Part shown: positions 15,895-52,902 of the stretch, piece after piece
How the letters are laid out: each line of letters begins with the position of its first letter
Position numbering within the stretch: position 1 is the first letter of the stretch
Assembly (NCBI RefSeq): GCF_017357525.1
Contig: NZ_CP036172.1
Location: 1,028,561-1,092,560, forward strand
DNA length: 64,000 nt
Reading direction: 5' to 3'
From: Methanofollis aquaemaris
Lineage (GTDB): Archaea; Halobacteriota; Methanomicrobia; Methanomicrobiales; Methanofollaceae
Program-made: the position numbers and the translations under genes
The notes under the pieces: generated by a model
Seen by the model: only the letters and a program-made list of their open reading frames with translations
The model's database searches: none
What the model was told of the DNA's origin: nothing

Positions 15895-15918
15895 TCCGGA
15901 GGCTCTCAACAATGCCCG

Positions 15919-15936: not shown

Positions 15937-15953
15937 AGCCTCTTCCGGACCGA

Positions 15954-35503: not shown

Positions 35504-35522
35504 TCAAATTGCTCTCATAAAA

Positions 35523-38504
35523 ATGAGCAATCATCAAAATACCACTTCTTTACGTATAATAGGGATAATTATTGCAGCTTTTTTGCTTTTTGTCGGCACG
35601 ACGAGCGCTGCCGTCCCCGCGGCATCATTCACCGCCGCACCGACGGAGGGCGTCGCACCTCTCACCGTCGCCTTCACCGACACCTCCGACGGCGACCCGA
35701 CCGGGCAGGCGTGGTTCTTCGGCGACGAGGACTACACGCAGGCCTGGACACCTCTGCCCGACGCCGGGTGGTCGGCGCGGAGTTTCCCTGCGACGGTCGC
35801 ACTGCCCGACGGCACCATTGTCCTCATGGGCGGCTGTGAATGGCCCGCCTACACAAACGACACCTGGAAGTCGACAGACGGCGGCAGGACCTGGACGGAG
35901 GTGAACGCGAGTTCAGGGTGGACGGCACGGTCCGGCCATACCACCGTCGCCCTCCCCGACGGCACTATCGTCCTCATGGGCGGTTTCGACGGCACCGCCG
36001 AACGGAACGACACCTGGATCTCGACCGATAGGGGCGTCACCTGGGAGCAGGTGAACGCGAGTTCGGGGTGGACGGCGCGGCAGGCCCATACCGCCGTCGC
36101 CCTCCCCGACGGCACTATCGTCCTCATGGGCGGTTTTGACGGCACCGGCTTCGTGAACGACGTCTGGCGGTCGGAGGACGGCGGCGTTACGTGGACGAAG
36201 CTGCCCGACGCAGGGTGGTCAAAAAGGATGTACCCTGAGAGCGTCGCCATGCCCGACGGCAGCATCATCCTCATGGGCGGTGCCAGCGGCGGTCCCACCG
36301 GCGGACTCTGCAATGACACCTGGCGATCGGAGGACGGCGGCAGGACCTGGACGGAGTTGCCCCGCGCCGGGTGGACGGGACGGATGTACCCCGAGAGCGT
36401 CGCCATGCCCGACGGCAGCGTCCTCCTGATGGGAGGGTACGACGGCGGGTATACGAACGATGTCTGGCGGTCGACCGATGACGGCGCCACCTGGACACAG
36501 GTGCCCGATGCCGGGTGGATGGGACGGAGCGGCCACACCTCCGTCGCCATGCCCGACGGGAGCGTCGTCGTCATGGGCGGTTCCGACGGCACCGATAAAA
36601 ACGACGTCTGGCAGTTCGGGCCCGCTGGGTCGACCGACCAGAACCCCACGCACACCTACGAGGTCGCAGGCACCTACACGGTGACTTTGCAGGCGTTCAA
36701 CGCCGACGGTCCGGCGCGGGCGACCGGGACGGTCACGGTCGCGGCATGTGTCCCGCCGACGGCGGCGTTCACCGGCACGCCGCTGTCCGGCACCGCACCC
36801 CTCACCGTCTGCTTCACCGACGCCTCGACCGGCGACCCGACCGGGCGGACCTGGTTCTTCGGCGACGAGGACTACACGGAGGCCTGGACACAGCTCCCTG
36901 ATGCCGCGTGGCCGGCACGGATCTGTTTCAGCAGCGTGGCGACGCCCGACGGCACCATCATCATCATGGGCGGGTGGGACGAGACCACCAATCTGAACGA
37001 CGTCTGGCGGTCGGCCGATGGCGGCGCGACCTGGACGAAAGCGGGGGATGCCCGGTGGTCAGCACGGTCCCATCACGCGGCCGTCGCCCTGCCCGACGGG
37101 AGCGTCGTCGTCATGGGCGGTTCCGACGCCGCAAGCCTGAACGACACCTGGATCTCGACGGATAAAGGCAGGACATGGACGCTCCAGAACGCGAGTTCAG
37201 GGTGGACGGCACGGGGAGACCCGGCCGTCGTCGCGCTTGCCGACGGGAGCATCGTCCTGATGGGCGGTTCCGATCCCTGGTGGAAGAACGACACCTGGAT
37301 CTCGACCGACAGGGGCATGACCTGGACGATGCAGAACGCGAGTTCGGGGTGGACGGGACGGACCTTCCACAGCAGCGTCGCCATGCCTGACGGGAGCATC
37401 ATCCTCACGGGAGGTCTCGACGGCACCGCCCGCCTGAACGACACGTGGCGCTCGACCGATGAAGGCGTTACCTGGACGCTGATGAACGGGAGTTCGGGGT
37501 GGGCCGGACGGACCTCCCACAGCATGGTCGCCATGCCCGACGGGAGCGTCCTCCTCATGGGCGGGTGGAACGGCACGCCTCTCCACGACGCCTGGCGGTC
37601 GACGGACAACGGCGCAACCTGGACGAGACTGCCCGATGCCGCGTGGGCGGGACGGTATTATCACGCCAGCGTCGCCCTGCCGGACGGGAGCGTCGTCGTC
37701 ATGGGCGGTCTCGATGACGACGCCCGCCTGAACGATGTCTGGCGTCTCCGGCCCGCAGAATCAGGGCAGAACCCCACGCACACGTACACGACGCCGGGCA
37801 CCTATACGGTCACGTTCCAGGCGTTCAATGCCGGCGGGTACGACCGCGAACAAAAGACTGTCACGGTCAGGGTGCCATCGTCGGGCGGCGGCGACGGTGA
37901 CGACTCGTGGACGGCACCGGCGGCGCAGTCGCTCACCTCACGCGACGTGACCGTGAGCGGGAGATCGGCCGTGAGCCGGGTCAACGTCACCGGCACCGGG
38001 ACCTCCGGGATCATCGTCACGGCCACCGTCCTCTCCGCACCGCCCGCCGGCGTCCCGCCGGTGCCGGGCAGCGTCCTCGAGTACGTCGATCTCGTGCCGG
38101 CCCGGTACACGAACATCACCGGGGCGACGGTCACCTTCACGGTCCCGGTCGCATGGATGGAGGAGCACCGCCTCTCCCCGGCCGACGTCGTGCTGTACCA
38201 CTATGCCAACGCCACCTGGAACGCCCTGCCGACGACGGCCGGGGCGACCGCGGACGGGGGGGTCACCTTCACGGCGACGAGTCCGGGCTTCTCCCTCTAC
38301 GCGATCTCCGGAGTAGCGGAAGTCCCGGCAGAACCGACAACAATCCCGACACCGGCGGCGACGGCCTCGCCCGCGACGCCGGTGACGACCGCGGAGGAGA
38401 CCACGGCCGTGCCGACGACGCAGCAGGCGGCGCCCGCTCTCCCCCTGGCGGCGATCGCGGTCGGCGGCGGGTTCCTCCTCAGGCGCCGGCGGATACAGCG
38501 GTAG
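35523..38504 (+). CDS. Giant surface protein: two Kelch-like propellers nested in PKD domains, PGF-pre-PGF tail
   Basis: 993 aa, exported: signal helix residues 9-30. Two modules follow. Each opens with the first half of a PKD domain (ASFTAAPTEGVAPLTVAFTD... WFFGDEDYT), then six repeats of about 48 residues with the core A-[LM]-PDG-[ST]-[IV]-[IV]-L-MGG and [ST]-TD-GG-x-TWT, then the second PKD half (QNPTHTY...GTYTVT). So six-bladed propellers sit inside PKD loops. Residues about 790-930 match the PGF-pre-PGF domain; a Thr/Ala linker, hydrophobic helix and RRRR end anchor it. The start 35523 is chosen by the signal peptide; the open frame upstream is the PPC pseudogene. Confidence 0.88.
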   Translation: MSNHQNTTSLRIIGIIIAAFLLFVGTTSAAVPAASFTAAPTEGVAPLTVAFTDTSDGDPTGQAWFFGDEDYTQAWTPLPDAGWSARSFPATVALPDGTIVLMGGCEWPAYTNDTWKSTDGGRTWTEVNASSGWTARSGHTTVALPDGTIVLMGGFDGTAERNDTWISTDRGVTWEQVNASSGWTARQAHTAVALPDGTIVLMGGFDGTGFVNDVWRSEDGGVTWTKLPDAGWSKRMYPESVAMPDGSIILMGGASGGPTGGLCNDTWRSEDGGRTWTELPRAGWTGRMYPESVAMPDGSVLLMGGYDGGYTNDVWRSTDDGATWTQVPDAGWMGRSGHTSVAMPDGSVVVMGGSDGTDKNDVWQFGPAGSTDQNPTHTYEVAGTYTVTLQAFNADGPARATGTVTVAACVPPTAAFTGTPLSGTAPLTVCFTDASTGDPTGRTWFFGDEDYTEAWTQLPDAAWPARICFSSVATPDGTIIIMGGWDETTNLNDVWRSADGGATWTKAGDARWSARSHHAAVALPDGSVVVMGGSDAASLNDTWISTDKGRTWTLQNASSGWTARGDPAVVALADGSIVLMGGSDPWWKNDTWISTDRGMTWTMQNASSGWTGRTFHSSVAMPDGSIILTGGLDGTARLNDTWRSTDEGVTWTLMNGSSGWAGRTSHSMVAMPDGSVLLMGGWNGTPLHDAWRSTDNGATWTRLPDAAWAGRYYHASVALPDGSVVVMGGLDDDARLNDVWRLRPAESGQNPTHTYTTPGTYTVTFQAFNAGGYDREQKTVTVRVPSSGGGDGDDSWTAPAAQSLTSRDVTVSGRSAVSRVNVTGTGTSGIIVTATVLSAPPAGVPPVPGSVLEYVDLVPARYTNITGATVTFTVPVAWMEEHRLSPADVVLYHYANATWNALPTTAGATADGGVTFTATSPGFSLYAISGVAEVPAEPTTIPTPAATASPATPVTTAEETTAVPTTQQAAPALPLAAIAVGGGFLLRRRRIQR

Positions 38505-39446: not shown

Positions 39447-39601
39447 GGGGGGTTCCTCCGGTGGGGTTCGCGGGTGATGGGTGTTTTTTGGATGGGTGTT
39501 TTCATAGGACTTCGGGTCAGGGGTTCATCTTTCCTTATGGGTTTTATTGTCTTGTGGTTGATCCTGGGGGTGGGATGGGGTGTGGAGGAGGAGAGTGTCA
39601 C

Positions 39602-39676
39602 AGCGGATGGGGAGCGGGCGTGGTGAACGGCATGATCCCGGGTGATGAGGTCACAGATGAAGGCTTTGGGGATCAT
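39602..39676 (-). pseudogene. Decayed N-terminal fragment of the phosphoribosyltransferase gene
   Basis: Minus-strand MIPKAFICDLITRDHAV matches the first residues of the intact gene at 31151 (MIPESFTCDLVAWDHAV) at 11 of 17 positions and continues weakly for 8 more, then similarity stops. The following 150 nt are a G/T-rich low-complexity stretch with no homology. A truncated paralogue at the left edge of the island. Confidence 0.55.
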
Positions 39677-39855
39677 CGGATAAATGAATTACAGAATTCC
39701 CGGTAAACGGTGCCTCGATCCAGGCAAATTTTTAAGTCCCGGGTTCCTTTGAGATCTGCCTCTAGACAAAATGGCCAATCGTATCGCTTAAAAAATAAAA
39801 TAACCTGCCCCACAACATAGAAAATCCGATCATCCATAGAATAGAAACAATTCCC

Positions 39856-39866
39856 TTTTAAATATC
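39856..39866 (+). promoter_or_regulatory. TATA box of the MORC-Z1 operon
   Basis: TTTTAAATATC matches the archaeal A-box and lies about 45 nt before the TTG start at 39907, where GGTGA (39897-39901) serves as ribosome site. This appears to drive all four overlapping genes. Confidence 0.5.
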
Positions 39867-39906
39867 AAAAACAAAATCCAGACTATTATCTAATAACGGT
39901 GATCTT

Positions 39907-41433
39907 TTGTCTACCGAAGATAACAAAAAAGACCTACAGGAAATACTGGGAGAATATGCAGACCCCAGGCCCTCTGCACTGATAGAGTCACTGAGGGCCT
40001 TTGGATATGATCTAAAAACATCCATTGCGGATCTGATTGACAACAGCATATCAGCACATGCAAAAAATATCTATGTTGATTTTTATTATAACGGCTTCGA
40101 TTCATCCGTTACCATCACAGATGACGGCATCGGAATGACGCTTGAAGGTCTTGTCAATGCCATGAGGCCCGGTTCCTTCAGTCCGCTTGAGGTCAGAAAA
40201 CCTGAAGATCTTGGGAGATTTGGTCTGGGCTTAAAAACGGCCTCATTTTCCCAGTGTCGGCGGACAACAGTTTTTTCAAAAATAGAAGGATCTACTGGCA
40301 ATGCCAGAACATGGGATCTTGACACGGTAATTGCAGGAAACAAATGGCAACTTATTATACCTAATTCATCTGGTGAGATCAGAGAATTTTCAAGAATCAG
40401 AAATTTTAATTCAGGAACTGTGGTATTATGGGAAAAAACAGACCGAATATCGTCCGGAATGGAAACCGAATGCGCAAATGATCTCAACCGTTTCAACGAT
40501 ATGATCGATGAGGTTTCTGAACATCTTTCAATGACATTTCACAGATTCCTGGAGGGACACGGGAAAATAAACATATTCATAAATGGAAATCCAGTAGAGC
40601 CCTGGGATCCATTTCTGTCATCACATCCCTCAACCCAGGAAATTACAGATGAACCCATTCCCCTAAGCAAAGAAATTGTTAATATTACGCCTTATGTCCT
40701 CCCCCACCATTCAAGAATCACCGATGAAGAGCATGAAAGATCTTCAGGACCTAAAGGATGGAACGATCAGCAGGGATTCTACATATACCGCAACAGAAGG
40801 CTTCTCGTATCAGGAAGCTGGCTTAATCTTGGATTTAAAAAGGAAGAACATTACAAACTCGCGAGAATAAAGGTTGACATTCCTAATTCACTTGATAGCC
40901 AGTGGCAGATTGATGTAAAAAAGGCAGTTGCCCGTCCCCCCCCACAGATAAGAGATGATCTCAAAAGGCTGGCAAGACTGACCCGTAAAAGGGCATCGGA
41001 CATATACCGGCACAGAGGAAAAATCATTGCAAGAACACAGTCTGGAAATGATACATTCATGTGGGAAATAATAACGAAAAACAGAAAACCCACATACAAA
41101 ATCAACAGAAAACATCCGCTTGTCAGTGATCTCCTGAATGACGATTCAGTGAATCACACAAAAATCAGACAGTTATTAAAAGGCATTGAGGAGACCGTTC
41201 CTATCAGTGCAATAATACTGAAAAATTCTGAGAATCCAGACAGTATTTCAGCACCTTTTGAGCATTCCAGCGAAGATGAGATTTATGGATACATTGATGT
41301 ATTCTATTTGGCTTTGAAAAAAAGAGGTTTTACGGATTCGGCTATCCTGGAAAAACTCAGATTTCACGAAGAATTCAGGGATTATCAGGATCTGATTGAC
41401 ATCTACTTTGAAAAGAGGCGTAAAAATGAATGA
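39907..41433 (+). CDS. MORC/MutL-like GHKL ATPase of a restriction-linked system
   Basis: 508 aa, TTG start with GGTGA five bases upstream. GHKL fold: N-box ADLIDNSISA at residues 41-50 (Asp42 where MutL has Glu), G1 DDGIGM at 72-77, G2 GRFGLGLK at 103-110. An S5-like transducer follows (VDIPNSLDSQWQIDVKKAVARPP), and residues 350-508 are helical. Iyer, Abhiman and Aravind described such MORC-like ATPases together with Z1, PD-(D/E)XK and AIPR proteins as predicted restriction-type systems. Probably loads or moves on DNA as an ATP-dependent clamp. Overlaps the Z1 gene by 8 nt. AT-rich codons unlike host genes. Confidence 0.9.
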   Translation: MSTEDNKKDLQEILGEYADPRPSALIESLRAFGYDLKTSIADLIDNSISAHAKNIYVDFYYNGFDSSVTITDDGIGMTLEGLVNAMRPGSFSPLEVRKPEDLGRFGLGLKTASFSQCRRTTVFSKIEGSTGNARTWDLDTVIAGNKWQLIIPNSSGEIREFSRIRNFNSGTVVLWEKTDRISSGMETECANDLNRFNDMIDEVSEHLSMTFHRFLEGHGKINIFINGNPVEPWDPFLSSHPSTQEITDEPIPLSKEIVNITPYVLPHHSRITDEEHERSSGPKGWNDQQGFYIYRNRRLLVSGSWLNLGFKKEEHYKLARIKVDIPNSLDSQWQIDVKKAVARPPPQIRDDLKRLARLTRKRASDIYRHRGKIIARTQSGNDTFMWEIITKNRKPTYKINRKHPLVSDLLNDDSVNHTKIRQLLKGIEETVPISAIILKNSENPDSISAPFEHSSEDEIYGYIDVFYLALKKRGFTDSAILEKLRFHEEFRDYQDLIDIYFEKRRKNE

Positions 41434-44218
41434 TGTAAAGAGAGGCACAAAACTGGTTCGAGATCTGATCGAGGATAAAATAAAGGAAGGTTTGCTTAAA
41501 AGAGAAGATATTGCAGAAGCAATTGAGGACTTAATGCCTGTCCTGAAAAAAATGTTTGACTGGGACGAGGGAAAAATAAGGGATACACTCCAACGTGAAG
41601 TAGAAAGCCAGACAAATACCTGGCTTGTGGAAAACGCTGCGGTTCTTGAAAATGATGAAAACCACGCTCCATGGCTTGATGATAAACGTGGTAAACTGAA
41701 CTGGGAGTTCTGGAACAGTTATATTGAGTACCTTCAGGATAAGGGGTGGAGCGGCACCCTGATAGAAAATCTTGACAATACAACAGATAATATCCTCAGG
41801 AGACTTGAAGATCCAGTTCGAGAAGGGAACTGGGATCGCCGTGGAATGGTTGTCGGTGAGATACAATCCGGAAAAACCTCAAATTATATCGGGCTTGCAT
41901 GTAAGGCATTTGATGCAGAATATAAACTGGTAATAATTCTCGCAGGCATACACAACAGTCTTAGAAGTCAGACACAGATACGTGTCAATGAGGGTATTAT
42001 AGGGAGCAATACCATTTCAGGGATAGATGATCCTGACTCACAAAAAAGAACAGGAGTTGGACTACTTCCGGGCTATGATTATAAGAAGAGACCCGGAACC
42101 CTGACTTCTATCGAAGACAATGGCGATTTTTCAAAAAAGGTCATGAAAAGCGCCGGCATAAAACCTGGCCAGATGCCATTGATTCTGGTTGTCAAAAAAA
42201 ATGTGACATCACTTAAAAATATAAAAAACTGGGCCCTTTCCGAGGCGCAACGTGTTGAAACAGGGGAAAAAATTCTCCGGGATGTACCTCTTCTTCTGAT
42301 AGATGATGAGGCTGACAACGCCTCAATAGATACAAATAAGATCCCCGATGCTGAACCAGATGAAGAGTCAGATGAGGAGTATGAACCGACAAGGATAAAT
42401 GGACTAATAAGAGGAATTCTTCACAGTTTTGAAAAATCTTCATATGTTGGATATACCGCAACACCCTTTGCAAATATATTCATATATCCCGTTAAATACC
42501 TCACAAAGTACGGAAGAGATCTGTTCCCGAGGAATTTTATCATCAGTCTTCCCACCCCTTCAAATTATATAGGTCCTGAAAAAGTATTCGGTTTCGATGA
42601 CGACCCGGAGACCGGCATTGAAGGGCAGGACGGGCTCCCACTTGTAATCCCAGTACATGACAGCGCGGATTACATACCTTCAATTCATAAAAGTGATCAT
42701 TATATCAGTGAAATTCCTGAATCCCTCAAAAAAGCGGTAAAATATTTTATTCTTTCCTGTACTGCAAGAACAGTCCGTGGACATCCGAATGAACATAATT
42801 CCATGCTTGTACATGTTACAAGATATATCAATGTGCAAACACGAATAGGAGTATTGGTGGAATCAGAGCTCAGAGCAGTTCAACAGAAACTAAAATACGG
42901 AACCGGCCGGAACTCCGAGAATATTCTTGAAGAATTCCATGAGATATGGGAGACAGATTTTGTCCCGGTTACAAGGACTGTTATAGAAAAAACAGGCGAT
43001 GCTGCAATCTCCGAAGTGTCCTGGGATGAAATAAAAGAGCATATTGTCCCTGTGGCATTAAAAATACGGATAATCATTGCAAACAGTTCTTCAAAAGACG
43101 TTCTTGAGTATAGAAACCATGAGAAAGTCGGGCTATCAGCGATCATAATTGGAGGAGACAGACTATCCCGAGGGCTGACACTTGAAGGTCTTACGATCAG
43201 TTACTATCTCCGTTCAACCCATATGTACGATACTCTTATGCAGATGGGAAGGTGGTTTGGTTATCGTCCCGGATATCTTGACCTCTGCCGGATTTTTACA
43301 ACAAGCGAACTGATAGAATGTTACCGCCATATAGCCCTTGCAGGAAAGGAACTGCGTGAAGAATTTATTCATATGGCAGACACAGGCGCAACCCCTGAGG
43401 ACTACGGCCTGCGGGTACGAACGCACCCGGGAAATATGATAGTTACAAGCGTTAACAAGATGCGTTACGGTGAAAAGATGAGGCTTTCGTATGCCGGAAC
43501 AGTCAGCGAAAGTGTGGTGTATTTTAGAGACAGGAATCAAAATGAGAAAAACATAAAATCAACAGGGGATTTCATTACAGAACTTAACAGTGGCAGGGAT
43601 TTCAGTAATATGAAAAAATATTACCTCTGGAGAAATATTCCCGCTGAAGATGTCATATCATATATGGACTCCATTAAGACACATCCGCATTCATATAAGG
43701 CAAATTCGTCCCTGATATCAAAATATATTAAAAAGGCATCGGCAAAGGGTGAACTAACCTCATGGACCATTGTACTGATGAACAGCGGAAACGGGGATAA
43801 AATAAAAATCGGGGATTACGAGGTAAAATCAGTAATCCGTTCACGTCTCAACACTGAAGACACATCTTCGGATAAGTATACAATACGCCGTCTGATATCA
43901 ACCCGTGACGAATGGCTCGATATGGATGAACCAGTCCGGAAAAACATCATGGCCATGACAGTGGAAGCCTGGAAAAATGGGAAAATAAAATCAAAAGAAG
44001 CACCAGAGATCCCTTCGGGCAGGATTATTCGCGAAAAAAGGGATAAATCAAGCGGACTGCTTCTCATATATCCTGTTGATCTTCGTGAGGGCAATAAAAT
44101 ACTTGTCCACACTACTGGATTTGCGGTAAGTTTTCCATACAGCAAAACCGCTCCAGACATTGAATACATCGTAAACAAGATCTACTGGGATAATGAGGTT
44201 CTTGATGGAGGATATTGA
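41426..44218 (+). CDS. Z1-domain superfamily II helicase-like ATPase
   Basis: 930 aa from ATG 41426. Walker A-like GEIQSGKTSNY at residues 144-154, the DEAD-like LLIDDEADNAS at 290-300, YTATPFANIF near 353, then the conserved Z1 region with IIGGDRLSRGLTLEGL and MQMGRWFGYRPGY near residues 572-620 (helicase motifs V-VI equivalents). Z1 proteins are thought to unwind or translocate DNA for the nuclease subunits. Overlaps its neighbours at both ends. Confidence 0.93.
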   Translation: MNDVKRGTKLVRDLIEDKIKEGLLKREDIAEAIEDLMPVLKKMFDWDEGKIRDTLQREVESQTNTWLVENAAVLENDENHAPWLDDKRGKLNWEFWNSYIEYLQDKGWSGTLIENLDNTTDNILRRLEDPVREGNWDRRGMVVGEIQSGKTSNYIGLACKAFDAEYKLVIILAGIHNSLRSQTQIRVNEGIIGSNTISGIDDPDSQKRTGVGLLPGYDYKKRPGTLTSIEDNGDFSKKVMKSAGIKPGQMPLILVVKKNVTSLKNIKNWALSEAQRVETGEKILRDVPLLLIDDEADNASIDTNKIPDAEPDEESDEEYEPTRINGLIRGILHSFEKSSYVGYTATPFANIFIYPVKYLTKYGRDLFPRNFIISLPTPSNYIGPEKVFGFDDDPETGIEGQDGLPLVIPVHDSADYIPSIHKSDHYISEIPESLKKAVKYFILSCTARTVRGHPNEHNSMLVHVTRYINVQTRIGVLVESELRAVQQKLKYGTGRNSENILEEFHEIWETDFVPVTRTVIEKTGDAAISEVSWDEIKEHIVPVALKIRIIIANSSSKDVLEYRNHEKVGLSAIIIGGDRLSRGLTLEGLTISYYLRSTHMYDTLMQMGRWFGYRPGYLDLCRIFTTSELIECYRHIALAGKELREEFIHMADTGATPEDYGLRVRTHPGNMIVTSVNKMRYGEKMRLSYAGTVSESVVYFRDRNQNEKNIKSTGDFITELNSGRDFSNMKKYYLWRNIPAEDVISYMDSIKTHPHSYKANSSLISKYIKKASAKGELTSWTIVLMNSGNGDKIKIGDYEVKSVIRSRLNTEDTSSDKYTIRRLISTRDEWLDMDEPVRKNIMAMTVEAWKNGKIKSKEAPEIPSGRIIREKRDKSSGLLLIYPVDLREGNKILVHTTGFAVSFPYSKTAPDIEYIVNKIYWDNEVLDGGY

Positions 44219-45221
44219 TTCAGTCTGGAACATTCTCTGTTCCGATGCAAAATCCGGGCACTTACAGGGAACTGCACGCCGTCTTCTCAACCCCGAAGGA
44301 TGTTGTCCCGTGTATGCAGGCGTAAGATCTTCTGACCTTTCAAGGATAATTTTTTTTAATGTAGGTAAGGAAAATCTTCCGTCCAGAAATAGATTTTCTC
44401 AGACCCGCGCAATGGAGGTATATTCAGGGAAAATCCCCGGGGATAATTCATATGCAGTGTGCCTCATTCTCAGAGATAAGAGTTTTTCGGATCTCTTCTC
44501 AGTACTGGCAGTAGATATTGTCAGTGAGATTCAGGATGAACCGGGTGAAAAAGCAGCAGTAAAGAGATTTGTCCGGAGAATTAATACCTGGATATCATTC
44601 TTCGAAAAATTCGGCAATTCGGGGCTTACACCTGAAAAGGTAAGGGGCCTTTATGGTGAATTATGGTTCATAAGACAATACCTTCTTTCCAGCAAGGATC
44701 GTTATAAAAAAATAAGAGGCTGGACAGGTCCAGATGGTACACCGCATGATTTTCAGTTTGGAAAAACCGCTTTTGAAGTAAAGACAACTGCAACAAAAAA
44801 ACCGTGGAAAGTCAAAATCTCCAATGAAATACAACTTGATGATTCAGGAATCGAAAATCTCTTTCTCTATCACCTGGCACTGAGAGAGATCGAAGGGGGC
44901 GCTCCGACACTTCCAGACCTTGTCGATGAAATACTGGATAATTTAAAATATACTCCTGAGATCCGTGGATATTTATTGGATATGCTGTTAAAAGCAGGTT
45001 ATATGGAGGCTCAAAAAGATCATTATATCCATAAAGGATTTATAATATATGAAGAAAATTTTTATAGAATCTGTGATGGATTTCCAAGGCTTACAGGCAA
45101 GGATCTCCCTGAGGGAACCGGAGATATTAATTATAGTGTCTCTCTGGCATCTGCAGGCAGTTTTATAACCGAAAAAGAAAAGATAGACAATATATTGGGG
45201 AAATTAAGTAATGATATTTAA
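44205..45221 (+). CDS. PD-(D/E)XK motif nuclease (DUF4420-like)
   Basis: 338 aa from ATG 44205, which has TGAGGT six bases upstream; ATG 44193 is possible. Putative active site: E152 in GLYGELWFI, D182 in GTPHDFQF, E191-x-K193 in TAFEVKTTA. This family accompanies Z1 and AIPR genes and is the likely DNA-cutting subunit. It overlaps the Z1 gene by 14 nt and AIPR by 11 nt. Confidence 0.88.
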   Translation: MEDIDSVWNILCSDAKSGHLQGTARRLLNPEGCCPVYAGVRSSDLSRIIFFNVGKENLPSRNRFSQTRAMEVYSGKIPGDNSYAVCLILRDKSFSDLFSVLAVDIVSEIQDEPGEKAAVKRFVRRINTWISFFEKFGNSGLTPEKVRGLYGELWFIRQYLLSSKDRYKKIRGWTGPDGTPHDFQFGKTAFEVKTTATKKPWKVKISNEIQLDDSGIENLFLYHLALREIEGGAPTLPDLVDEILDNLKYTPEIRGYLLDMLLKAGYMEAQKDHYIHKGFIIYEENFYRICDGFPRLTGKDLPEGTGDINYSVSLASAGSFITEKEKIDNILGKLSNDI

Positions 45222-47991
45222 TCTGACTCATCTCAACTCATTCTGCAGCGACTTCAGACAGGATGTCATCAGGGGATCTGAAGAGGACGGGAGCACACAT
45301 GAGGACAAATTCACCGAACTCATAATGGATGCACTCGAAGAGGCAGATGAGACAGAAAATGCCGTGGTCTGTTACCACAAAAAGACCGGAATAAAGGTAA
45401 ACGGTTATGGAGTAAATGATTCCGGCGACATTCTGGATCTATTTATCTCAGAATATTCCGGCCAGTCGCCACCGGGCAGCATTCCTAAATCCGACATTAG
45501 ATTGGCATTCAGACGTGTTGAAAAATTCTTTGAAAAATGTCTGGATGGTTACTACAGATCTCTTGAAGAAGCACAGCCGGTCTATGATCTTTCAGACAGA
45601 ATATACAGATTCAGCAGTGAATTAAGAAAAATAAGATTTTTTCTTCTGACTGATAAAACATCAAGACTTGAAGAGATTAAAGACAAGGAACAGGGAGATT
45701 TTGTATATACATACCAGGTGTGGGATATCAACAGGTATCACAAACTTGTTAGTTCAGGAAGAAGCAGGGAATCCATAATAATAAAAATAAAGGAAGATTT
45801 TGACAGCTCTCTGCCCTGCCTGGATGAAGGCGGTAAAAATCCAGTTTATACCTCTTATCTTGCAGTAATACCCGGGAAGACACTTGTTAGCCTGTACGAT
45901 GAATACGGCCCAAGACTGCTTGAAAGGAATGTACGATCATACCTTCAGGTAAGAGGAAAGGTCAATAAAGGCATCCGGAACACTGTTCTAAACGATCCTG
46001 AAATGTTTCTTGCATACAACAACGGTCTTTCAACCACTGCCGAAGAGGTAACAACAGAAGTTATCGGAGGCAGGACATACATTACAGAGATTCGCGATTT
46101 TCAGATTGTCAACGGTGCACAGACCACCGCAACAATACATGATACATATGTGAAGAACAAAGATAAGGTTGATCTTCAGTATATTAATATTCCCATGAAA
46201 CTGACAGTTTTGAAAGACAGTTCTCAATTAAATGAGATTGTTCCCAGAATATCACAGTACTCAAATACACAGAATAAAATAGATATGGCGGATTTTTCGT
46301 CAAACCATCCGTTCCACATAAAAATGGAGGAACTTTCTGGAAGGATTCGGGCTCCTTCTCGGGAAGGTATCCAGCTTGAATCATACTGGTTCTATGAGAG
46401 AGTCAGGGGCCAGTACCTGAATAAAAGAAATAGGGAAGTTACACCTGCAAAAAAGAAACTTTTTGATAAGATCTATCCCAAGAGTCAGAAAATTGAAAAG
46501 ACAGAACTTCCAGTTTTTGAGCATACCTGGCAGATGCGACCCTATGATGTCAGTCTCGGCAAACAAAAAAATTATAAACTTTTCATGGACGAGATGGCAT
46601 CCAGAAGTGTCATTGAACCAGATGAAAAATATTTTATCGGCGCCGTTGCAAAGGCAATACTTTACAGGACAACGTATTCAATTGTCCGGAGGGAACTTGA
46701 AGGGGGATATAGGCCCAATATTGTAACTTATTCCATTGCTTATCTGAATTATAAAACCGGTAGTAAAATCAATCTCGAAAAAATCTGGAAGGAACAGGAT
46801 ATCTGTCCTGAACTCCGGGATGTCCTCTCCCAACTTGTAAAGGATATACAGCAGTTTATTATAACCGCTCCAGAGGGCAAAAATGTCACTGAATTCTGTA
46901 AAAAAAAGGAATGCTGGGATAAACTTTGTCAGGGAAATATTGAGTTAGCTGAAGGGGTCAGGGCGGCGTTTTCAGATGCTGAAAAACCAAATAAATCAGG
47001 GATAACAGCAAGTATTCCATTCAGCAGTGTTTCCCCGGAAGAATGGAAAAAAATTGAAGTTTGGGGCCTTCAAACAAGTTATCTTAACTCTAAACAGCGT
47101 AATATTGCAAAAAAGATCTTTTCAAATATGAAGGCAGGCAGATACTGTTCTCCTGATCTTATGCTTGAAGCCCTGGCTGTAATTAACATCGCCAAAAATA
47201 TGGGTTTTAATTTTTCCTCGTACAGTACGTCCAGAAAAGATGAATCTGAAAAATACAATATTTTTAGTGAAGAACCTGCAAAATCAAATTCAGAATCCAC
47301 CCCGGTATCCCCGGTTGAATCCTCAGGAATTTCCGATAAAATGATAGAAGCGGAGGTAATTCGGGTTCTGAAAAAGCATGGCGGCAAATGTAGAGTATCA
47401 GATTTGATCGGAGAACTGGAAAAAACATGGGATAGTCAGTTGACAGAATATGATCGTGAGATCTATGGGTCAGGTTATTCCAGATGGAGAGTCAGGGTTA
47501 CGGGAATGAAAAATCATCTGATTGAGAATAAAATTCTGAAGAAGCACTCAGAGAATGGAATCTGGGTTCTGAATCCGCGTTATGGCCCTGGAAAGATAAC
47601 CGGCCCAGAAAAAATAAACGATAAACCAGAGTTGATAAAAGATAAGTATGGAAAAATACTGAACACAGGCATTTCAGATGAAAAGATCGAAGAGGATATT
47701 GTCCGTGTTCTTAAAATGCACGGTGGTGCCACACAACTTTCCACTCTTCTTTCTGAACTTGAGGATGTTTGGGGCGGAGTTTTAACCCCGGTGGATCTTG
47801 AGAAAAGTAAGACAGGATATGTCAGATGGCGAACAAGGGTTTCCACAAAAAAGAATAACCTGATTAAAAAAGGAATCCTTGATAAAAATCGTCAGTCCGG
47901 GATCTGGAAGCTTGATAAGAGGACATATAATGATTCAGTTAAGGTAACTGAGGGATTTTTGTCTGAGGATTCAGTGCATGCTCATGATTAA
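45211..47991 (+). CDS. AIPR-family protein with two C-terminal winged-helix repeats
   Basis: 926 aa. The abortive-infection phage-resistance core shows LLERNVRSYLQVRGKVNKG and FLAYNNGLSTTAEEV near residues 245-285, then IVNGAQTTATI, as in AIPR proteins. The last 220 residues add two copies (about 705-790 and 819-903) of a segment with ...EVIRVLKKHGG...LIGELEKTW...GYSRWRVRV...NHLIENKIL...GIWVLN, which looks like the Mrr N-terminal winged helix. They may give sequence or modification recognition. Last gene of the operon, convergent with the glycosylase. Confidence 0.88.
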   Translation: MIFNLTHLNSFCSDFRQDVIRGSEEDGSTHEDKFTELIMDALEEADETENAVVCYHKKTGIKVNGYGVNDSGDILDLFISEYSGQSPPGSIPKSDIRLAFRRVEKFFEKCLDGYYRSLEEAQPVYDLSDRIYRFSSELRKIRFFLLTDKTSRLEEIKDKEQGDFVYTYQVWDINRYHKLVSSGRSRESIIIKIKEDFDSSLPCLDEGGKNPVYTSYLAVIPGKTLVSLYDEYGPRLLERNVRSYLQVRGKVNKGIRNTVLNDPEMFLAYNNGLSTTAEEVTTEVIGGRTYITEIRDFQIVNGAQTTATIHDTYVKNKDKVDLQYINIPMKLTVLKDSSQLNEIVPRISQYSNTQNKIDMADFSSNHPFHIKMEELSGRIRAPSREGIQLESYWFYERVRGQYLNKRNREVTPAKKKLFDKIYPKSQKIEKTELPVFEHTWQMRPYDVSLGKQKNYKLFMDEMASRSVIEPDEKYFIGAVAKAILYRTTYSIVRRELEGGYRPNIVTYSIAYLNYKTGSKINLEKIWKEQDICPELRDVLSQLVKDIQQFIITAPEGKNVTEFCKKKECWDKLCQGNIELAEGVRAAFSDAEKPNKSGITASIPFSSVSPEEWKKIEVWGLQTSYLNSKQRNIAKKIFSNMKAGRYCSPDLMLEALAVINIAKNMGFNFSSYSTSRKDESEKYNIFSEEPAKSNSESTPVSPVESSGISDKMIEAEVIRVLKKHGGKCRVSDLIGELEKTWDSQLTEYDREIYGSGYSRWRVRVTGMKNHLIENKILKKHSENGIWVLNPRYGPGKITGPEKINDKPELIKDKYGKILNTGISDEKIEEDIVRVLKMHGGATQLSTLLSELEDVWGGVLTPVDLEKSKTGYVRWRTRVSTKKNNLIKKGILDKNRQSGIWKLDKRTYNDSVKVTEGFLSEDSVHAHD

Positions 47992-48066
47992 AGTAAAAGG
48001 AAAAGACACTCTTTTAGAAGATATGACAAAAAATACCCGATGTCAGGAAGGGAATAAATTGTACGA

Positions 48067-48735
48067 TTAATCCTCCCTGACCTGCACCCCTTCCAGGTAA
48101 TACCTGCACATCTCCTTTAACGGACACTCCTGATGAAGAGGAACCTGTGCTCTGCAGATCGCAGCGGTAAAATCCAGGATTGCAAAGAGAAGTCGTCCCG
48201 GATCTTCCACAGAAAAAAGATCTTCTGCGATGGTTCTGACATCCCTCTTTCTTCTGATCTCACCGGTGAGATGTAATCCATAGAATCTGTTGATAAACCT
48301 CGCAATGTTTGAATCAATAACCGGATGCGACTTTCCATAACATATGGTGAGGATTGCTCCAGCCACATACTCTCCGACTCCCGGAATTTCTCTCAATCCA
48401 TTCTCTGTTTCAGGGAACTTTCCTCCAGATTCCCTGACGATGTATCGGGCTGCCTCGATGAAGTGTGCTGAACGCCAGTGAAGCCCGAGGTGTTCCGTCA
48501 CCAGCCGGACATCAGAAATATTCGCCTGTGCAAGGCTGAAAACATCCGGATAATGAAGGATAAACTCAGTATATACTGGAACAACCTGATCTGCCCGCGT
48601 TCTATGCAGCATGAATTCAGCAATCATGACCCTGTAAGGATCACGAGTGTGACGCCAGAGATAGTCCCTGAAATGTTCAGCTCCCCACTCCTGCAGCTGT
48701 CTCTGTATTTCTCCTGCATCTACAGATTTCATCAT
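48067..48735 (-). CDS. Mig-type T:G-mismatch DNA glycosylase (EndoIII/MutY family)
   Basis: 222 aa from ATG 48735, with AGGTG seven bases upstream; a start at 48774 would overlap the methyltransferase. HhH hairpin IPGVGEYVAGAIL with Tyr123 where EndoIII has Lys and MutY Ser; Tyr is the Mig.MthI (T:G glycosylase) residue. Catalytic Asp141 lies in PVIDSNIARF. The cluster motif reads C194-x6-H201-x2-C204-x5-C210, so the second Cys is His. It should remove T arising from deaminated 5-methylcytosine made by the adjoining methyltransferases, as in Methanothermobacter plasmid pFV1. Confidence 0.88.
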   Translation of the reverse strand: MMKSVDAGEIQRQLQEWGAEHFRDYLWRHTRDPYRVMIAEFMLHRTRADQVVPVYTEFILHYPDVFSLAQANISDVRLVTEHLGLHWRSAHFIEAARYIVRESGGKFPETENGLREIPGVGEYVAGAILTICYGKSHPVIDSNIARFINRFYGLHLTGEIRRKRDVRTIAEDLFSVEDPGRLLFAILDFTAAICRAQVPLHQECPLKEMCRYYLEGVQVRED

Positions 48736-48751
48736 ACTCAACACCTGCAAT

Positions 48752-49687
48752 TCAGATATATTTCCGACTCTCAATCATTTCCCGAATGACCCGGGCCATC
48801 TTCTGTGCCGCGATGGGGCTGACGGCATTGGCAACCATCTGATACCTTATGCTCAGGCCCATACCTGCGGGAAACCGGAAATCTGCAGGAAAACCCATGA
48901 TCTCCATGGTTTCCCGCACCGATAATACTCGCAGCGGGAAGTTTCCCTCTCCAGCCCTGGGATGGAGAATGTAGGTCTTCATAATGTTGCCAAAGGAGGG
49001 AGCATACCCATCATACTCCAACTTTGACCACCCATATTTGCCTGAATCATAATATTCCCGATACCGGTCTATTGTATTGAGGTGTGGCCATTCGTGATCG
49101 GGAACCTTTCCCTCTGCGTACCCTTCATATTTTTCGATTGCCTGGCCAACGGTGATTGGTTGCTCCTTTAAACGGTCCATGCGAATGAAAAAATCCTTTG
49201 CATCTAGTCCGAAATCTCTGAAGCCTACTGTGAATAGTCGCCGTCTTTTCGTTGCCGCCCCGAAATCGAGATATTTCAACGATTGTGAGGCTACGCTATA
49301 TCCTTCTCTTTTGACCTTTTTTATGAGCGATCGAAAGCCTTCGTCGCTCCCCATAGGGGGTACATTCTCCATCAGGAAAGCATGGGGTCTGAGTTCGATC
49401 ACATGGTCGAAGAATCGTTCGAGAAGCCGATAATCCGGATGGAGCGATCCCCGCTTCCGTGTGTTGATACTCGACCAGGGGCGACATGGAGGACCACCCA
49501 TCACAACATCAAATGTCCCGGGAACCGAGCCCAAGGTGAGATCGGCCTCAATACATTCACCAATATCATTGGTTGAAAATATATCTGCAGAGTACTGATT
49601 GATGTCAGCACCTGTTACAGAAAATCCGTCGTCTCTAAATCCCAGTGAGAGCCCGCCAGCGCCACAGAATAGGTCAAGTGCTCTCAT
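48752..49687 (-). CDS. DNA (cytosine-5) methyltransferase 1
   Basis: 311 aa. Motif I DLFCGAGGLSLGF (5-17), motif IV GGPPCRPWS with C68, motif VI MENVP with E107, motif VIII KRRRLFTVGF and motif X QMVANAVSP near residue 284. The target-recognition region is short (about residues 175-255). It has PCR in place of the commoner PCQ, seen in one branch of Dcm-like enzymes. Directly follows a second 5-methyltransferase and precedes the glycosylase, with 16 nt between. Confidence 0.94.
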   Translation of the reverse strand: MRALDLFCGAGGLSLGFRDDGFSVTGADINQYSADIFSTNDIGECIEADLTLGSVPGTFDVVMGGPPCRPWSSINTRKRGSLHPDYRLLERFFDHVIELRPHAFLMENVPPMGSDEGFRSLIKKVKREGYSVASQSLKYLDFGAATKRRRLFTVGFRDFGLDAKDFFIRMDRLKEQPITVGQAIEKYEGYAEGKVPDHEWPHLNTIDRYREYYDSGKYGWSKLEYDGYAPSFGNIMKTYILHPRAGEGNFPLRVLSVRETMEIMGFPADFRFPAGMGLSIRYQMVANAVSPIAAQKMARVIREMIESRKYI

Positions 49688-49726
49688 TATTTCACCATTA
49701 TCCAGTTTGTGAACCAGATCATGTTT

Positions 49727-50998
49727 TCAATCTACAACCTTTTGTATCATTTTTTTAATTTCCCGGGCGATTCCTTCGGCCATTAGAGGGGGAACCGCGT
49801 TTCCTATCTGAACATATTGTGCAGTCCGTGGCCCTTCAAAGAGATAGTTGTCAGGGAATGACTGGATACGAGCAGCCTCACGCACTGTAAGAGAACGGGC
49901 CTGACTTATATCTGGATGAATGAAAAAATGCCCATCTTTCGAGAGATGAGCGACAATTGCATGTGAAAGTCCATCTCCATCGACAACCTTGAATCGATCC
50001 AGGAATGAAGATTGATTGGCATGTGTCTTCAGGTTTTCAGGTAGTTCATTATAACGCAGCCGCTTTTTACTGTCATTCCACATCCTGATCGCAGTTCGAT
50101 ATATCTCACGATCTCTGTCATTATGATTTCTTGCAATGTGGTGACGGACATATCTATGATTGTTACGGATATGGGATCTCTTGAGGTACCCAGAGGGCCG
50201 GCCGACCCTGTATCTCTGTGGTCCATCCGTTCCTTCCCCGGGTTCGAGTTCACGAAGGTCTTTCAGTACATCCCAGATTTTATACCGGGGTTCAGCGATT
50301 TCGAACCCAGGATAGGTAAGATCATGATCTTTCTTCCATCCTATGAATATGATACGTTTTCTGTTCTGCAGAACTCCAAAATCCCGTGCATTCAGGATCT
50401 TAGGCTCTGGAGGAGTATAATATCCAAGACTTTTAATCCGCTCCAAGAAATCAGAGTAAATCTCTCCATTTCTAGCGCTTATCAGACCCGGTACGTTTTC
50501 AAAAACAAATATTTCAGGTTTAAATTCATCGATGAATCGTAAGTAGTGAATATAGAGGTGATTCCTAGGATCATTCCGCATTTTATTCAAATCTCGCGCT
50601 CTCCCTATCAGAGAATATGCCTGACAGGGTGGACCACCTATGATAACATCGACGTTGTTTCGATTCAGGTCATCAAGACGAGCATGGACATCGGCTATAG
50701 TTTTATCCAGTGTTTCTACAGATAGTTCACGGTCTATGATTCCAGTGTCCGAAACATCCAGTGATTTACACTCTTCAAGGAATTCATCACGGGAAATTTC
50801 CTGATCATAATACTGATAATAGATGTCCTGCTGCCCTTTTTCAACAAGAGCATGGAACAAGGTCCGGGTTTCAAGCGTCCGCGCTGCATGGACGTTCATC
50901 TCGATGTGGGAAACGATATTGAAATCATTCCGAAAAAATCCCTCGGTGAGTCCACCTGCACCTGCAAACATATCCAGGACTATTTTTTTTGACACCAC
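49727..50998 (-). CDS. DNA (cytosine-5) methyltransferase 2
   Basis: 423 aa from GTG 50998, with AGGTGAG six bases upstream. Motif I DMFAGAGGLTEGFF (9-22), motif IV GGPPCQAYS with C125, motif VI FENVPG with E167, motif VIII QNRKRIIFIGW, and motif X YVQIGNAVPPLMAEGIA near the end. Longer than the first enzyme, with a bigger insertion between I and IV and a bigger recognition domain. The two probably recognise different sites or strands. Confidence 0.95.
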   Translation of the reverse strand: MVSKKIVLDMFAGAGGLTEGFFRNDFNIVSHIEMNVHAARTLETRTLFHALVEKGQQDIYYQYYDQEISRDEFLEECKSLDVSDTGIIDRELSVETLDKTIADVHARLDDLNRNNVDVIIGGPPCQAYSLIGRARDLNKMRNDPRNHLYIHYLRFIDEFKPEIFVFENVPGLISARNGEIYSDFLERIKSLGYYTPPEPKILNARDFGVLQNRKRIIFIGWKKDHDLTYPGFEIAEPRYKIWDVLKDLRELEPGEGTDGPQRYRVGRPSGYLKRSHIRNNHRYVRHHIARNHNDRDREIYRTAIRMWNDSKKRLRYNELPENLKTHANQSSFLDRFKVVDGDGLSHAIVAHLSKDGHFFIHPDISQARSLTVREAARIQSFPDNYLFEGPRTAQYVQIGNAVPPLMAEGIAREIKKMIQKVVD

Positions 50999-50999
50999 C

Positions 51000-51303
51000 G
51001 ATTTCTCACCTGCAAACGAATATTACTATGAATTAATCAATTGTTATAATCTGTTTCTGAAAATCAAAAAAGATTTCCTTTCTTTTGCTATAGAATAGAA
51101 ATTGATAATGTCCCCCTCATTTTTTGTTGAAAAAATCAGCAGTTGTCACTATTATTAAATCCAGAAAATGGCAGCATCCAGAACACTATCCGACATGGCC
51201 CGATAAAAATTCCGGAAACCTAAAATCAATCCCAGACCAGCAAGATCCAGGAGAGGAGAGCCACCCCTCCAGGGGGTCTCCCACTCACGCCAGCGCTGGC
51301 ACG
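51000..51303. other. Right edge of the AT-rich island
   Basis: No gene. Up to about 51150 the DNA is AT-rich and must hold the methyltransferase promoter (TTATAATC-like elements on the minus strand near 51045-51060). Then it becomes GC-rich with hairpins: ACCCCTCCAGGGGGT at 51265-51279 and the 12-bp palindrome GCCAGCGCTGGC at about 51291-51302. No att-like direct repeat was recognised. Confidence 0.4.
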
Positions 51304-51448
51304 CCATCGGCCCGGGCCTCGCGGCGTTGTCGAGGATCACGGTCTTCACCGCGTTGAAGCCGACCTGTGTCGGCGTACAAAGGTCATTCGGGCTGGCATG
51401 GATCTCCGGCCCCCATGTTCCGGCACCGCCGCGGCCGTCCCACCCCAA
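51304..51448 (-). pseudogene. Unidentified host-type gene fragment at the island edge
   Basis: Minus-strand frame with strong G/C third positions, reading ...EIHASPNDLCTPTQVG, NAVKTVILDNAARPGPM. It is bounded by the GNAT gene on one side and island DNA on the other, with no start or stop that fits a whole gene. I do not recognise the family. Looks like the stump of a gene cut by the island's insertion or by deletion. Confidence 0.4.
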
Positions 51449-51932
51449 ACCTCACACACCCCTCCTCATCCCCCACCCCATCACACACAAACCCGCACTT
51501 CTCCAGCACCCGCACCGAAGCACCATTCCCCGCTTCCGCCTGCGCCACGACACGCACCACCTCAGGAAACCCAAACGCCCACGCCACCAGGGCGGCCACC
51601 GCCTCGGTCGCATACCCGCACCCCCGGTACGCCGGGAGAACCGCATACCCGATCTCCGCCTCGCCCTCAAGCGACGGCCGCCCGACAAACCCGCACGAAC
51701 CGACGAGCACCCCCTCCGCGGAGATCACGTACCAGAGATTCCAGCCCACACTCTCAGGGTCATTCTTCAACCAGGAGAAAAAAATTGGGAGGGCGTCGGG
51801 GAGCGTCTCGGGCGGCCAGTCATCGGGGACGGCGGCGCCCAGCAGACCGGCAAGCGTCGGGGCGTCGGCGGCAAGGTGCGCCGCCGTGGCCGGGACCAGG
51901 CGGAGACGGGCGGTCTCGAACGCCTCACTCAC
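51384..51932 (-). CDS. GNAT-family N-acetyltransferase
   Basis: 182 aa from GTG 51932, overlapping the methyltransferase stop by 8 nt. RimJ/RimL-like: N-terminal FETARLRLVPATAAHL, acetyl-CoA loop RGCGYATEAVAALVAWAF near residues 103-120, and RVLEKCGFVCDG near 141-152. Substrate unknown (protein N-terminus or small amine). Its last 60 nt run into the gene fragment at the island edge, so the C-terminal tail may be altered. Confidence 0.88.
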   Translation of the reverse strand: MSEAFETARLRLVPATAAHLAADAPTLAGLLGAAVPDDWPPETLPDALPIFFSWLKNDPESVGWNLWYVISAEGVLVGSCGFVGRPSLEGEAEIGYAVLPAYRGCGYATEAVAALVAWAFGFPEVVRVVAQAEAGNGASVRVLEKCGFVCDGVGDEEGCVRFGVGRPRRCRNMGAGDPCQPE

Positions 51933-52902
51933 TCCATCCCTCGGCCCGCAACCGCTCCTTCGCGCGTCCCACATACCCCTCGTCCGAATCCACGCAGACA
52001 AAGTGCCGCCCCGCCTGCAACGCCGCGATCCCCGTGCTCCCCGCCCCCGCAAACGGATCGAGGACCACGTCGCCCTTGAACGTATAGAGCTGGATGCAGC
52101 GGAACGGGAGTTCGACCGGGAACGGTGCCGGGTGGCCCACCTTCTTCGCCGAGACCGTCGGGAACGTCCAGATGCTCTTGGTCCACTCCAGGAACTGGTC
52201 CCTCGTGATCGTGTCCTCGCGCTCGCCCTTCTTGCGGGAGTACGTCCCCTTCGAGAAGACCAGGATATACTCGTGGACATCGCGCAGCGTCGGGTTCGAG
52301 GCCGAACACCAGCTCCCCCAGGCCGTCGAGATCCCCGCCCCGGTCGCCTTGTTCCAGATCACCTCGCCGCGCATCAGGAACCCCAGGTCGTGCATCACCG
52401 AGATGATATAACTGTGATACGGGATGTAGGGCTTTCTCCCGACATTCGCCACATTCACGCAGGCCCGCCCGCCAGGGACGAGCACCCGGTAGACCTCGGC
52501 AAAGACCGTGCGCAGGAGAGAAAGATACTCGTCGAGATCGAGGTCGTCGTCGTAGGTCTTGCCGACATTGTACGGCGGCGAGGTGACCATCAGGTGGACA
52601 CTGTCGTCCGGGAGGAAGGAGAGATCCCTGCTGTCCTTGCAGATCACCTCATCGAGGCACTCCTCCGGCACCTCGTTCTCACCGGTCCCGCCCTGACTCC
52701 CCTCTCCCCCGGCCGCATAGATCCGCCGGCCGTAGAAGGCGCTTGCGTTATGACATTCCCGTTTCGAAACCCCGAACTCACTGGTCTCCGACTTCTTCCT
52801 CCCGAAGGTGACGCGCTGCCTGCACGTCGGGCAGGTGGTGGAGTACTTCGCCTTCCCGGTATATTCCCAGGAGAAACCGCATGCCGGACAGGTGAGATGC
52901 AT
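51925..52902 (-). CDS. Beta-class DNA amino-methyltransferase with N-terminal zinc ribbon
   Basis: 325 aa. Residues 5-27 hold C-P-x-C ... C-P-T-C (CPACGFSW, TTCPTCRQR), a zinc ribbon. Then the beta-class order: motif IV TSPPY at 108-111, target region, FPVELPFRCIQ (X), and motif I DPFAGAGSTG at 282-291. Product N4-methylcytosine or N6-methyladenine. No nuclease neighbour, GC-rich host codons: a solitary host methyltransferase rather than part of the island. Confidence 0.93.
   Translation of the reverse strand: MHLTCPACGFSWEYTGKAKYSTTCPTCRQRVTFGRKKSETSEFGVSKRECHNASAFYGRRIYAAGGEGSQGGTGENEVPEECLDEVICKDSRDLSFLPDDSVHLMVTSPPYNVGKTYDDDLDLDEYLSLLRTVFAEVYRVLVPGGRACVNVANVGRKPYIPYHSYIISVMHDLGFLMRGEVIWNKATGAGISTAWGSWCSASNPTLRDVHEYILVFSKGTYSRKKGEREDTITRDQFLEWTKSIWTFPTVSAKKVGHPAPFPVELPFRCIQLYTFKGDVVLDPFAGAGSTGIAALQAGRHFVCVDSDEGYVGRAKERLRAEGWSE

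What the first reader, a model, noticed from the sequence alone, without database searches (positions are those of the whole stretch)
39856..50998. Compact defence-type island: MORC ATPase, Z1, PD-(D/E)XK, AIPR, two m5C methyltransferases and a T:G glycosylase
Four overlapping genes on the plus strand (MORC-like GHKL, Z1 helicase, PD-(D/E)XK, AIPR) face three minus-strand genes (two cytosine-5 methyltransferases and a Mig-like glycosylase) in one block of AT-rich DNA within a GC-rich chromosome. MORC/Z1/REase/AIPR gene sets were predicted as restriction-type systems in comparative genomics (Iyer, Abhiman and Aravind). Here they come with two methyltransferases and a dedicated repair enzyme for methyl-C deamination, which suggests a methylation-guided, multi-subunit restriction system. 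That whole assembly working as one unit is inference.
Basis: partly seen in the sequence, partly recalled or inferred. Interest (0 to 1): 0.85.

Follow-up and report, generated by a model that had tools for sequence, protein, structure and literature searches.

The report
Archaeal restriction island with own repair enzyme
Seven neighbouring genes in a methane-producing archaeon form a recognised kind of multi-protein anti-virus DNA restriction system that also carries two DNA-methylating enzymes and, instead of the repair nuclease its relatives usually carry, a glycosylase predicted to mend the mutations that such methylation causes.

Summary
Window ~39,577-51,435 is a 42.5% GC insert in 62.8% GC DNA holding exactly the seven genes named. 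The plus-strand half is mzaBCDE-like (MORC/GHKL, Z1, DUF4420 PD-(D/E)XK, AIPR); no mzaA sigma factor. In 94 MORC-Z1 loci from archaea and bacteria, a C5 methyltransferase is adjacent in 87, and in 52 of the 52 with long flanks. A Vsr repair nuclease is present in 61 and a Mig-like glycosylase in 8; no locus has both. So methyltransferase plus T:G repair is a normal part of this system, and here the glycosylase stands where Vsr usually does. The two halves still evolve separately: the effector genes co-vary (r 0.78-0.91), the methyltransferase is often swapped (r ~0.3). The window's trio (two methyltransferases + glycosylase) recurs in another genome around an unrelated GHKL effector set. The system type is already described (Iyer 2008; Gao 2020; Miller 2022); the Mig-for-Vsr replacement, the second methyltransferase and the double Mrr_N tail on AIPR make this a new variant. 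Restriction of unmethylated DNA is the likeliest function but is inferred, not shown.

The parts
39577..51435 (.). foreign segment at a variable chromosomal site; holds the seven genes only
   Evidence: homology with congeners stops at ~39,570-39,599 and resumes at ~51,435-51,448; between these limits congeners are empty or carry other systems; GC 0.425 vs 0.628
39907..41433 (+). MzaB-like MORC/GHKL ATPase, 508 aa
   Evidence: PADLOC MzaB 1.8e-109; NCBIfam NF041932 440 bits (cut-off 850, not met); Pfam HATPase_c_3; N-box ADLIDNS, DDGIGM and GRFGLGLK motifs conserved across homologues
41426..44218 (+). MzaC-like Z1-domain SF2 helicase/ATPase, 930 aa
   Evidence: PADLOC MzaC 6.5e-203; NF041933 786 bits (cut-off 1500); Pfam Z1; invariant GxxQSGKT, DDEAD, YTATP, DTLMQMGRWFG
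44193..45221 (+). MzaD-like PD-(D/E)XK nuclease (DUF4420), 342 aa
   Evidence: Pfam DUF4420 4.2e-68; NF041934 140 bits; E156, D186, E195, K197 each kept in 90 of 91 homologues
45211..47991 (+). MzaE-like AIPR protein, 926 aa, with two C-terminal Mrr_N-like winged-helix repeats (about 707-790 and 820-902)
   Evidence: PADLOC MzaE 2.7e-89; Pfam AIPR, AIPR_N, Mrr_N 1.2e-07; the tail is absent from nearly all of 85 aligned AIPRs; AlphaFold2 model pLDDT 80.6
48067..48774 (-). Mig-like HhH-GPD DNA glycosylase, up to 235 aa (likely start ~48,732 by alignment with relatives), predicted T:G repair
   Evidence: best solved relative 1KEA Mig, 1e-47; Tyr and Asp catalytic positions and the (H/R)RT motif instead of MutY LQQT
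48752..49687 (-). second C5-cytosine methyltransferase, 311 aa (MT311), short target-recognition region
   Evidence: Pfam DNA_methylase 2.8e-39; close homologue found in only one other genome of 298 relatives and 394 phylum members
49727..50998 (-). main C5-cytosine methyltransferase, 423 aa (MT423)
   Evidence: Pfam 1.2e-62, PADLOC DrmMII-type PDLC02649 3e-184; 74-76% identical to the methyltransferase next to four other methanogen MZA-like loci

Best explanation
A multi-subunit, ATP-driven restriction system of the MZA type. The C5 methyltransferase(s) mark host DNA. The effector complex (MORC clamp/looping ATPase, Z1 translocase, DUF4420 nuclease, AIPR sensor/effector) attacks DNA lacking that mark. 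The Mig-like glycosylase removes thymines that arise when the system's own 5-methylcytosines deaminate, the task Vsr does in most relatives. Shown here: gene identities, intact motifs, conserved linkage of methyltransferase and effector, mutual exclusion of Vsr and glycosylase, insertion as one block, modular exchange. Inferred: that methylation protects the host, that unmethylated DNA triggers the effector, the role of each subunit, the T:G activity, and the methylated sequences.
For: MzaB-E matches. C5 methyltransferase next to the MORC-Z1-DUF4420-AIPR cassette in 87/94 loci and 52/52 with long flanks, in archaea, Pseudomonadota, Actinomycetota, Bacteroidota, Cyanobacteria, Verrucomicrobia and others. 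Vsr in 61/94, Mig-like in 8/94, both in 0/94 (hypergeometric 1e-4; 0.003 with the four close Methanomicrobiales loci counted once). The glycosylase lies in five different arrangements relative to the cassette. These are the genome's only two C5 methyltransferases, and a separate MutY-like gene exists elsewhere. Other m5C systems at the same site in congeners also bring their own repair gene: Vsr in L151, Mig-like beside Druantia in L152. Precedent: plasmid pFV1 has mig next to an NgoPII-type restriction-modification pair.
Against: No experiment. NCBIfam MZA equivalog cut-offs are not met, so equivalence to the tested mzaABCDE is uncertain. The methyltransferase tree barely tracks the effector tree (r ~0.3) and target-recognition regions differ strongly between loci with near-identical Z1 proteins, which does not fit a classical pair of enzymes sharing one fixed site. 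The nearest relative of the window's MORC/Z1/AIPR (L029) has no recognisable DUF4420 nuclease. About a quarter of loci show neither Vsr nor the glycosylase, some because contigs end.
Confidence: 0.65

Rival explanations
1. The effector cassette is an abortive-infection machine triggered by something other than missing methylation (for example a phage protein or DNA end), and the methyltransferase acts as an addiction or regulatory element rather than as the self mark.
For: AIPR is named for abortive infection. Many bacterial relatives carry a dedicated sigma factor (28/94), so expression is regulated. The effector tolerates very different methyltransferases. From memory, mzaABCDE was tested without an added methyltransferase.
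Against: A C5 methyltransferase is present in every fully covered locus (52/52), usually with a deamination-repair gene, which argues for real, extensive genomic methylation.
Confidence: 0.18
2. Two independent neighbours: an orphan methyltransferase/repair module and a separate MZA effector that share a defence hotspot.
For: Opposite strands and different GC (0.40-0.42 against 0.44-0.49). The trio exists without MZA genes in G018 (L147). The site is a hotspot.
Against: 52/52 linkage across phyla; in most methanogen relatives the methyltransferase is the first gene of the same-strand operon and, where present, the glycosylase usually the last; the segment limits enclose only these seven genes.
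Confidence: 0.08
3. Phage-growth-limitation logic: the methyltransferase marks invading DNA during infection and the effector then attacks marked DNA.
For: Mrr_N-like modules, known from modification-dependent Mrr-type proteins, are fused to this AIPR.
Against: The host would be methylated by the same enzymes; a built-in deamination repair enzyme implies long-term host methylation (inference).
Confidence: 0.05

Closest known systems
mzaABCDE (Gao et al. 2020; NCBIfam NF041931-NF041935, PADLOC MzaA-E)
   Same: MORC, Z1, DUF4420 and AIPR in the same order, full-length HMM matches
   Different: no MzaA sigma factor; scores well below the equivalog cut-offs; methyltransferases and glycosylase attached; long AIPR tail
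Type II Z1/PD-(D/E)XK/cytosine-methyltransferase system predicted by Miller et al. 2022 (PMC9523054)
   Same: Z1 + PD-(D/E)XK + C5 methyltransferase core, plus AIPR, associated with MORC; mzaA mostly absent; ~20% identity to Mza proteins
   Different: two methyltransferases and a Mig-like glycosylase; divergent gene orientation; archaeal host (the paper describes spread across bacteria)
Third class of MORC restriction-modification operons (Iyer, Abhiman, Aravind 2008, PMC2292703)
   Same: SF2 helicase with DThhQXuRhFG motif, novel RE-fold nuclease, DCM often plus Vsr, AIPR
   Different: Mig-like glycosylase instead of Vsr; the paper does not mention glycosylases
pFV1 Mig with NgoPII-family restriction-modification (Methanothermobacter)
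   Same: T:G glycosylase encoded beside a C5 methyltransferase
   Different: simple Type II restriction enzyme; window glycosylase only ~28% identical to Mig
DISARM (DrmMII)
   Same: both methyltransferases match PADLOC DrmMII profiles best
   Different: none of the DISARM core proteins among the island genes

Membership tests
MZA (mzaABCDE) | MzaB, C, D and E homologues adjacent and in order | tested here: met
MZA (mzaABCDE) | MzaA sigma factor | tested here: not met
   no MzaA match around the island; present in 28 of 94 loci, profile confirmed
MZA (mzaABCDE) | NCBIfam equivalog score cut-offs | tested here: not met
   440/850, 786/1500, 140/420, 405/1050 bits
MZA (mzaABCDE) | anti-phage activity | not testable with these tools
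   needs an infection or plasmid-exclusion assay
Miller 2022 type II Z1/DUF/methyltransferase system | Z1 + PD-(D/E)XK + C5 methyltransferase core, plus AIPR, with MORC | tested here: met
Iyer 2008 class-3 MORC restriction-modification operon | Z1-type SF2 helicase with DThhQXuRhFG motif and RE-fold partner with E-D-ExK | tested here: met
   DTLMQMGRWFG; E156, D186, E195, K197; paper
Mig T:G glycosylase | HhH-GPD with Tyr and Asp catalytic positions, no MutY C-terminal domain, non-MutY (no LQQT) recognition motif | tested here: met
   note that some MutY proteins also have the Tyr
Mig T:G glycosylase | excises T from T:G | not testable with these tools
   biochemical
Mig T:G glycosylase | groups with Mig rather than MutY in a tree | tested here: inconclusive
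   deep branches unresolved
DISARM | DrmA/DrmB/DrmC core genes | tested here: not met
   no such match among the seven island proteins

The most novel reading that the evidence does not exclude
The MZA effector is indifferent to which sequence is methylated and takes its specificity from exchangeable methyltransferase + repair cartridges: the methyltransferase itself acts as the recognition subunit or licence, so one restriction engine can be re-aimed by swapping the cartridge, and the same cartridge (MT423-MT311-Mig) can serve unrelated GHKL effectors.
Probability: 0.3. Interest if true: 0.75.

Novelty: new variant of a known kind. Interest (0 to 1): 0.52.

Why it matters
MZA-type systems are widespread but mechanistically unknown. 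The near-universal methyltransferase, the mutually exclusive Vsr or Mig repair gene, and swapping of the methyltransferase under a near-constant effector together give a testable model: a restriction system gated by DNA methylation whose specificity module is exchangeable. It also suggests that the mutational cost of 5-methylcytosine is heavy enough for mobile restriction systems to carry their own repair enzyme, with two unrelated enzymes filling the same slot.

Tried and rejected
A single-sequence Z1 scan of genome contigs found nothing; repeated with an alignment it gave 80 loci. DISARM was considered because of the DrmMII matches and rejected for lack of other Drm genes. A housekeeping MutY identity for the glycosylase was rejected: the sequence motif and size fit Mig better, a separate MutY-like gene exists, and the gene is conserved in other MZA-like loci. 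AIPR and Z1: no sequence match in the PDB. Fold search of the AIPR model: best matches not significant (a ParB-N domain E=0.29 prob 0.25; FokI E=1.5 prob 0.35), kept only as leads. A tree of the glycosylases did not resolve deep branches. Predicting the methylated sequences from target-recognition regions was not possible. Paper searches for an experimental MZA mechanism found none in the held library; the Gao 2020 paper is not held.
Full report
WHAT IS THERE. The window lies in a 2.75 Mb single-contig genome. Its closest loci in the named collection belong to Methanoculleus and Methanocalculus, so the host is probably a member of Methanomicrobiales (inference). Seven genes fill 39,907-50,998. 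On the plus strand are a MORC/GHKL ATPase, a Z1 helicase, a DUF4420 PD-(D/E)XK protein and an AIPR protein, overlapping by a few bases. On the minus strand are a 423-aa and a 311-aa C5 methyltransferase and an HhH-GPD glycosylase. The plus-strand proteins match MzaB, MzaC, MzaD and MzaE of the anti-phage MZA system over most of their length, but below NCBI's equivalog cut-offs. Catalytic motifs are intact in the Z1, PD-(D/E)XK and both methyltransferase proteins. The MORC N-box carries Asp where MutL has Glu, but 88 of 92 homologues do too.

ONE INSERTED BLOCK. The segment has 42.5% GC against 62.8% around it. In other members of the genus the two flanking genes (a UbiA-like gene and an N4/N6 methyltransferase gene) lie about 1 kb apart with none of these genes between them (G009) or 2.5 kb apart (G008). 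In G005 they enclose a UvrD-family helicase, Vsr, a C5 methyltransferase and a GHKL protein; in G003 Druantia genes with a Mig-like glycosylase and a C5 methyltransferase. Homology breaks at ~39,577 and ~51,435, so the seven genes and nothing else make up the local insert. This is a defence hotspot, not a tRNA site (the only tRNA is at 55.4 kb).

DO THE HALVES BELONG TOGETHER? A C5 methyltransferase is adjacent in 87 and in all 52 loci with several kilobases of flank on both sides. Vsr is present in 61, a Mig-like HhH glycosylase in 8, both in none; MzaA in 28. Pfam confirms Vsr in all six sampled members and NCBIfam confirms MzaA. The absence of overlap has a hypergeometric probability of 1e-4, or 0.003 with the four close Methanomicrobiales loci counted once; phylogeny is only crudely handled, and the 80 contig loci are the best-scoring ones, not a random sample. 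The glycosylase sits in five arrangements: last gene of the operon (L020, L021, L023, L026), convergent behind AIPR (L027), directly after the methyltransferase (L045), downstream before the methyltransferase in Marinobacter (L097), and the window's. The simplest reading is that the slot 'repair of deaminated 5-methylcytosine' is filled by either of two unrelated enzymes.

MODULARITY. Tree distances of MORC, Z1, PD-(D/E)XK and AIPR correlate at 0.78-0.91; the methyltransferase correlates with them at only 0.30-0.36, and with Vsr at 0.51. Loci with 89-91% identical Z1 proteins can have methyltransferases whose recognition regions are ~15% identical (L084/L100, L077/L100). Conversely the window's MT423 region is 69-75% identical to L020-L026 although their Z1 proteins are only ~43% identical. 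In genome G018 (L147) the complete trio recurs at 57% (MT311), 57% (glycosylase) and 64% (MT423) identity around a different set: a 651-aa protein with a GHKL-like N-box matching PADLOC PDC-M33A, plus two unknown proteins. No MORC-Z1-DUF4420-AIPR cassette was recognised there. So methyltransferase(s) and repair enzyme behave as a cartridge that can pair with different effectors. The second methyltransferase is found with the other two in both places, which argues that it is part of the cartridge. Close homologues were found in only these two genomes among 298 relatives and 394 phylum members.

THE GLYCOSYLASE. Best solved relative is Mig, 1KEA (1e-47; MutY structures follow closely). It has the Tyr and Asp at the Mig catalytic positions, an (H/Q/R)RT motif where MutY has QQT, C-terminal Cys residues for an Fe-S cluster, and lacks the MutY C-terminal domain by length. 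The genome has a separate MutY-like gene. T:G activity is inferred. pFV1 of Methanothermobacter shows mig near an NgoPII-type restriction-modification pair, so a glycosylase beside a methyltransferase is known; I found no report of one in MZA-type systems, within the limits of the held library.

THE AIPR PROTEIN. At 926 aa it is longer than nearly all of 85 relatives, with two Mrr_N-like winged-helix repeats at the end. The AlphaFold2 model is confident over the AIPR body (pLDDT 80.6 overall) but weak in the tail, and fold matches to solved structures are not significant. These repeats could help read DNA sequence or methylation; this is speculation.

MECHANISM. Most likely the methyltransferases mark the host, the MORC-Z1-nuclease-AIPR complex attacks unmarked DNA using ATP, and the glycosylase limits C-to-T mutation at the marks. 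Iyer et al. proposed DNA looping by MORC and unwinding by the helicase. The exchange of methyltransferases under a constant effector is hard to reconcile with separate enzymes that both recognise one fixed sequence, and suggests the methyltransferase contributes specificity to the complex; this is the most interesting open point. Against certainty: L029, the nearest relative of the effector genes, lacks a recognisable DUF4420 nuclease.

STATUS. The system type is known: predicted in 2008, tested as MZA in 2020 (cited by Miller; the original paper was not readable here), and extended with a methyltransferase core in 2022. What is added here is quantitative linkage, the Vsr/Mig alternation, the cartridge exchange, and the archaeal variant with two methyltransferases.

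Noticed in passing
L152 (G003:C1:1709801-1728800), 3743-16504: At the same chromosomal site a congener carries Druantia-type genes (DruF, DruL, DruE, DruK) followed by a Mig-like glycosylase and a C5 methyltransferase: the glycosylase also accompanies Druantia.
   Followed up: partly
L151 (G005:C1:1204001-1216500), 2726-9687: At the same site another congener carries a UvrD-family helicase with a PD-(D/E)XK domain, Vsr, a C5 methyltransferase and a GHKL protein similar to PADLOC Type II REase models.
   Followed up: partly
L147 (G018:C7:76001-96000), 9684-16298: The window's methyltransferase-methyltransferase-glycosylase trio surrounds a different three-gene set (GHKL-like 651 aa, 261 aa and 243 aa without Pfam matches): possible undescribed defence system.
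   Followed up: partly
L029 (G012:C1:823301-843300), 5942-12806: Nearest relative of the window's MORC, Z1 and AIPR has no recognisable DUF4420 nuclease between Z1 and AIPR; Vsr is present instead of the glycosylase.
   Followed up: no
L031, L033, L034: Archaeal MORC-Z1-DUF4420 loci without AIPR; L031 and L033 carry a second, ~725-aa GHKL protein and a response-regulator-like neighbour.
   Followed up: no
window 51925-52902 (-): N4/N6-type DNA methyltransferase conserved in most of the genus and of host-like GC; it borders the hotspot but is not part of the insert.
   Followed up: partly
window 35196-38504 (+): Large 1102-aa predicted surface protein with PKD-like segments and long internal repeats (LPDAGWS..R / MPDGSI.LMGG).
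   Followed up: no
L155 (G000:C1:2535801-2538300): The host's own MutY-like protein has ETN where related glycosylases have a catalytic Asp (D.N); its activity may differ.
   Followed up: no
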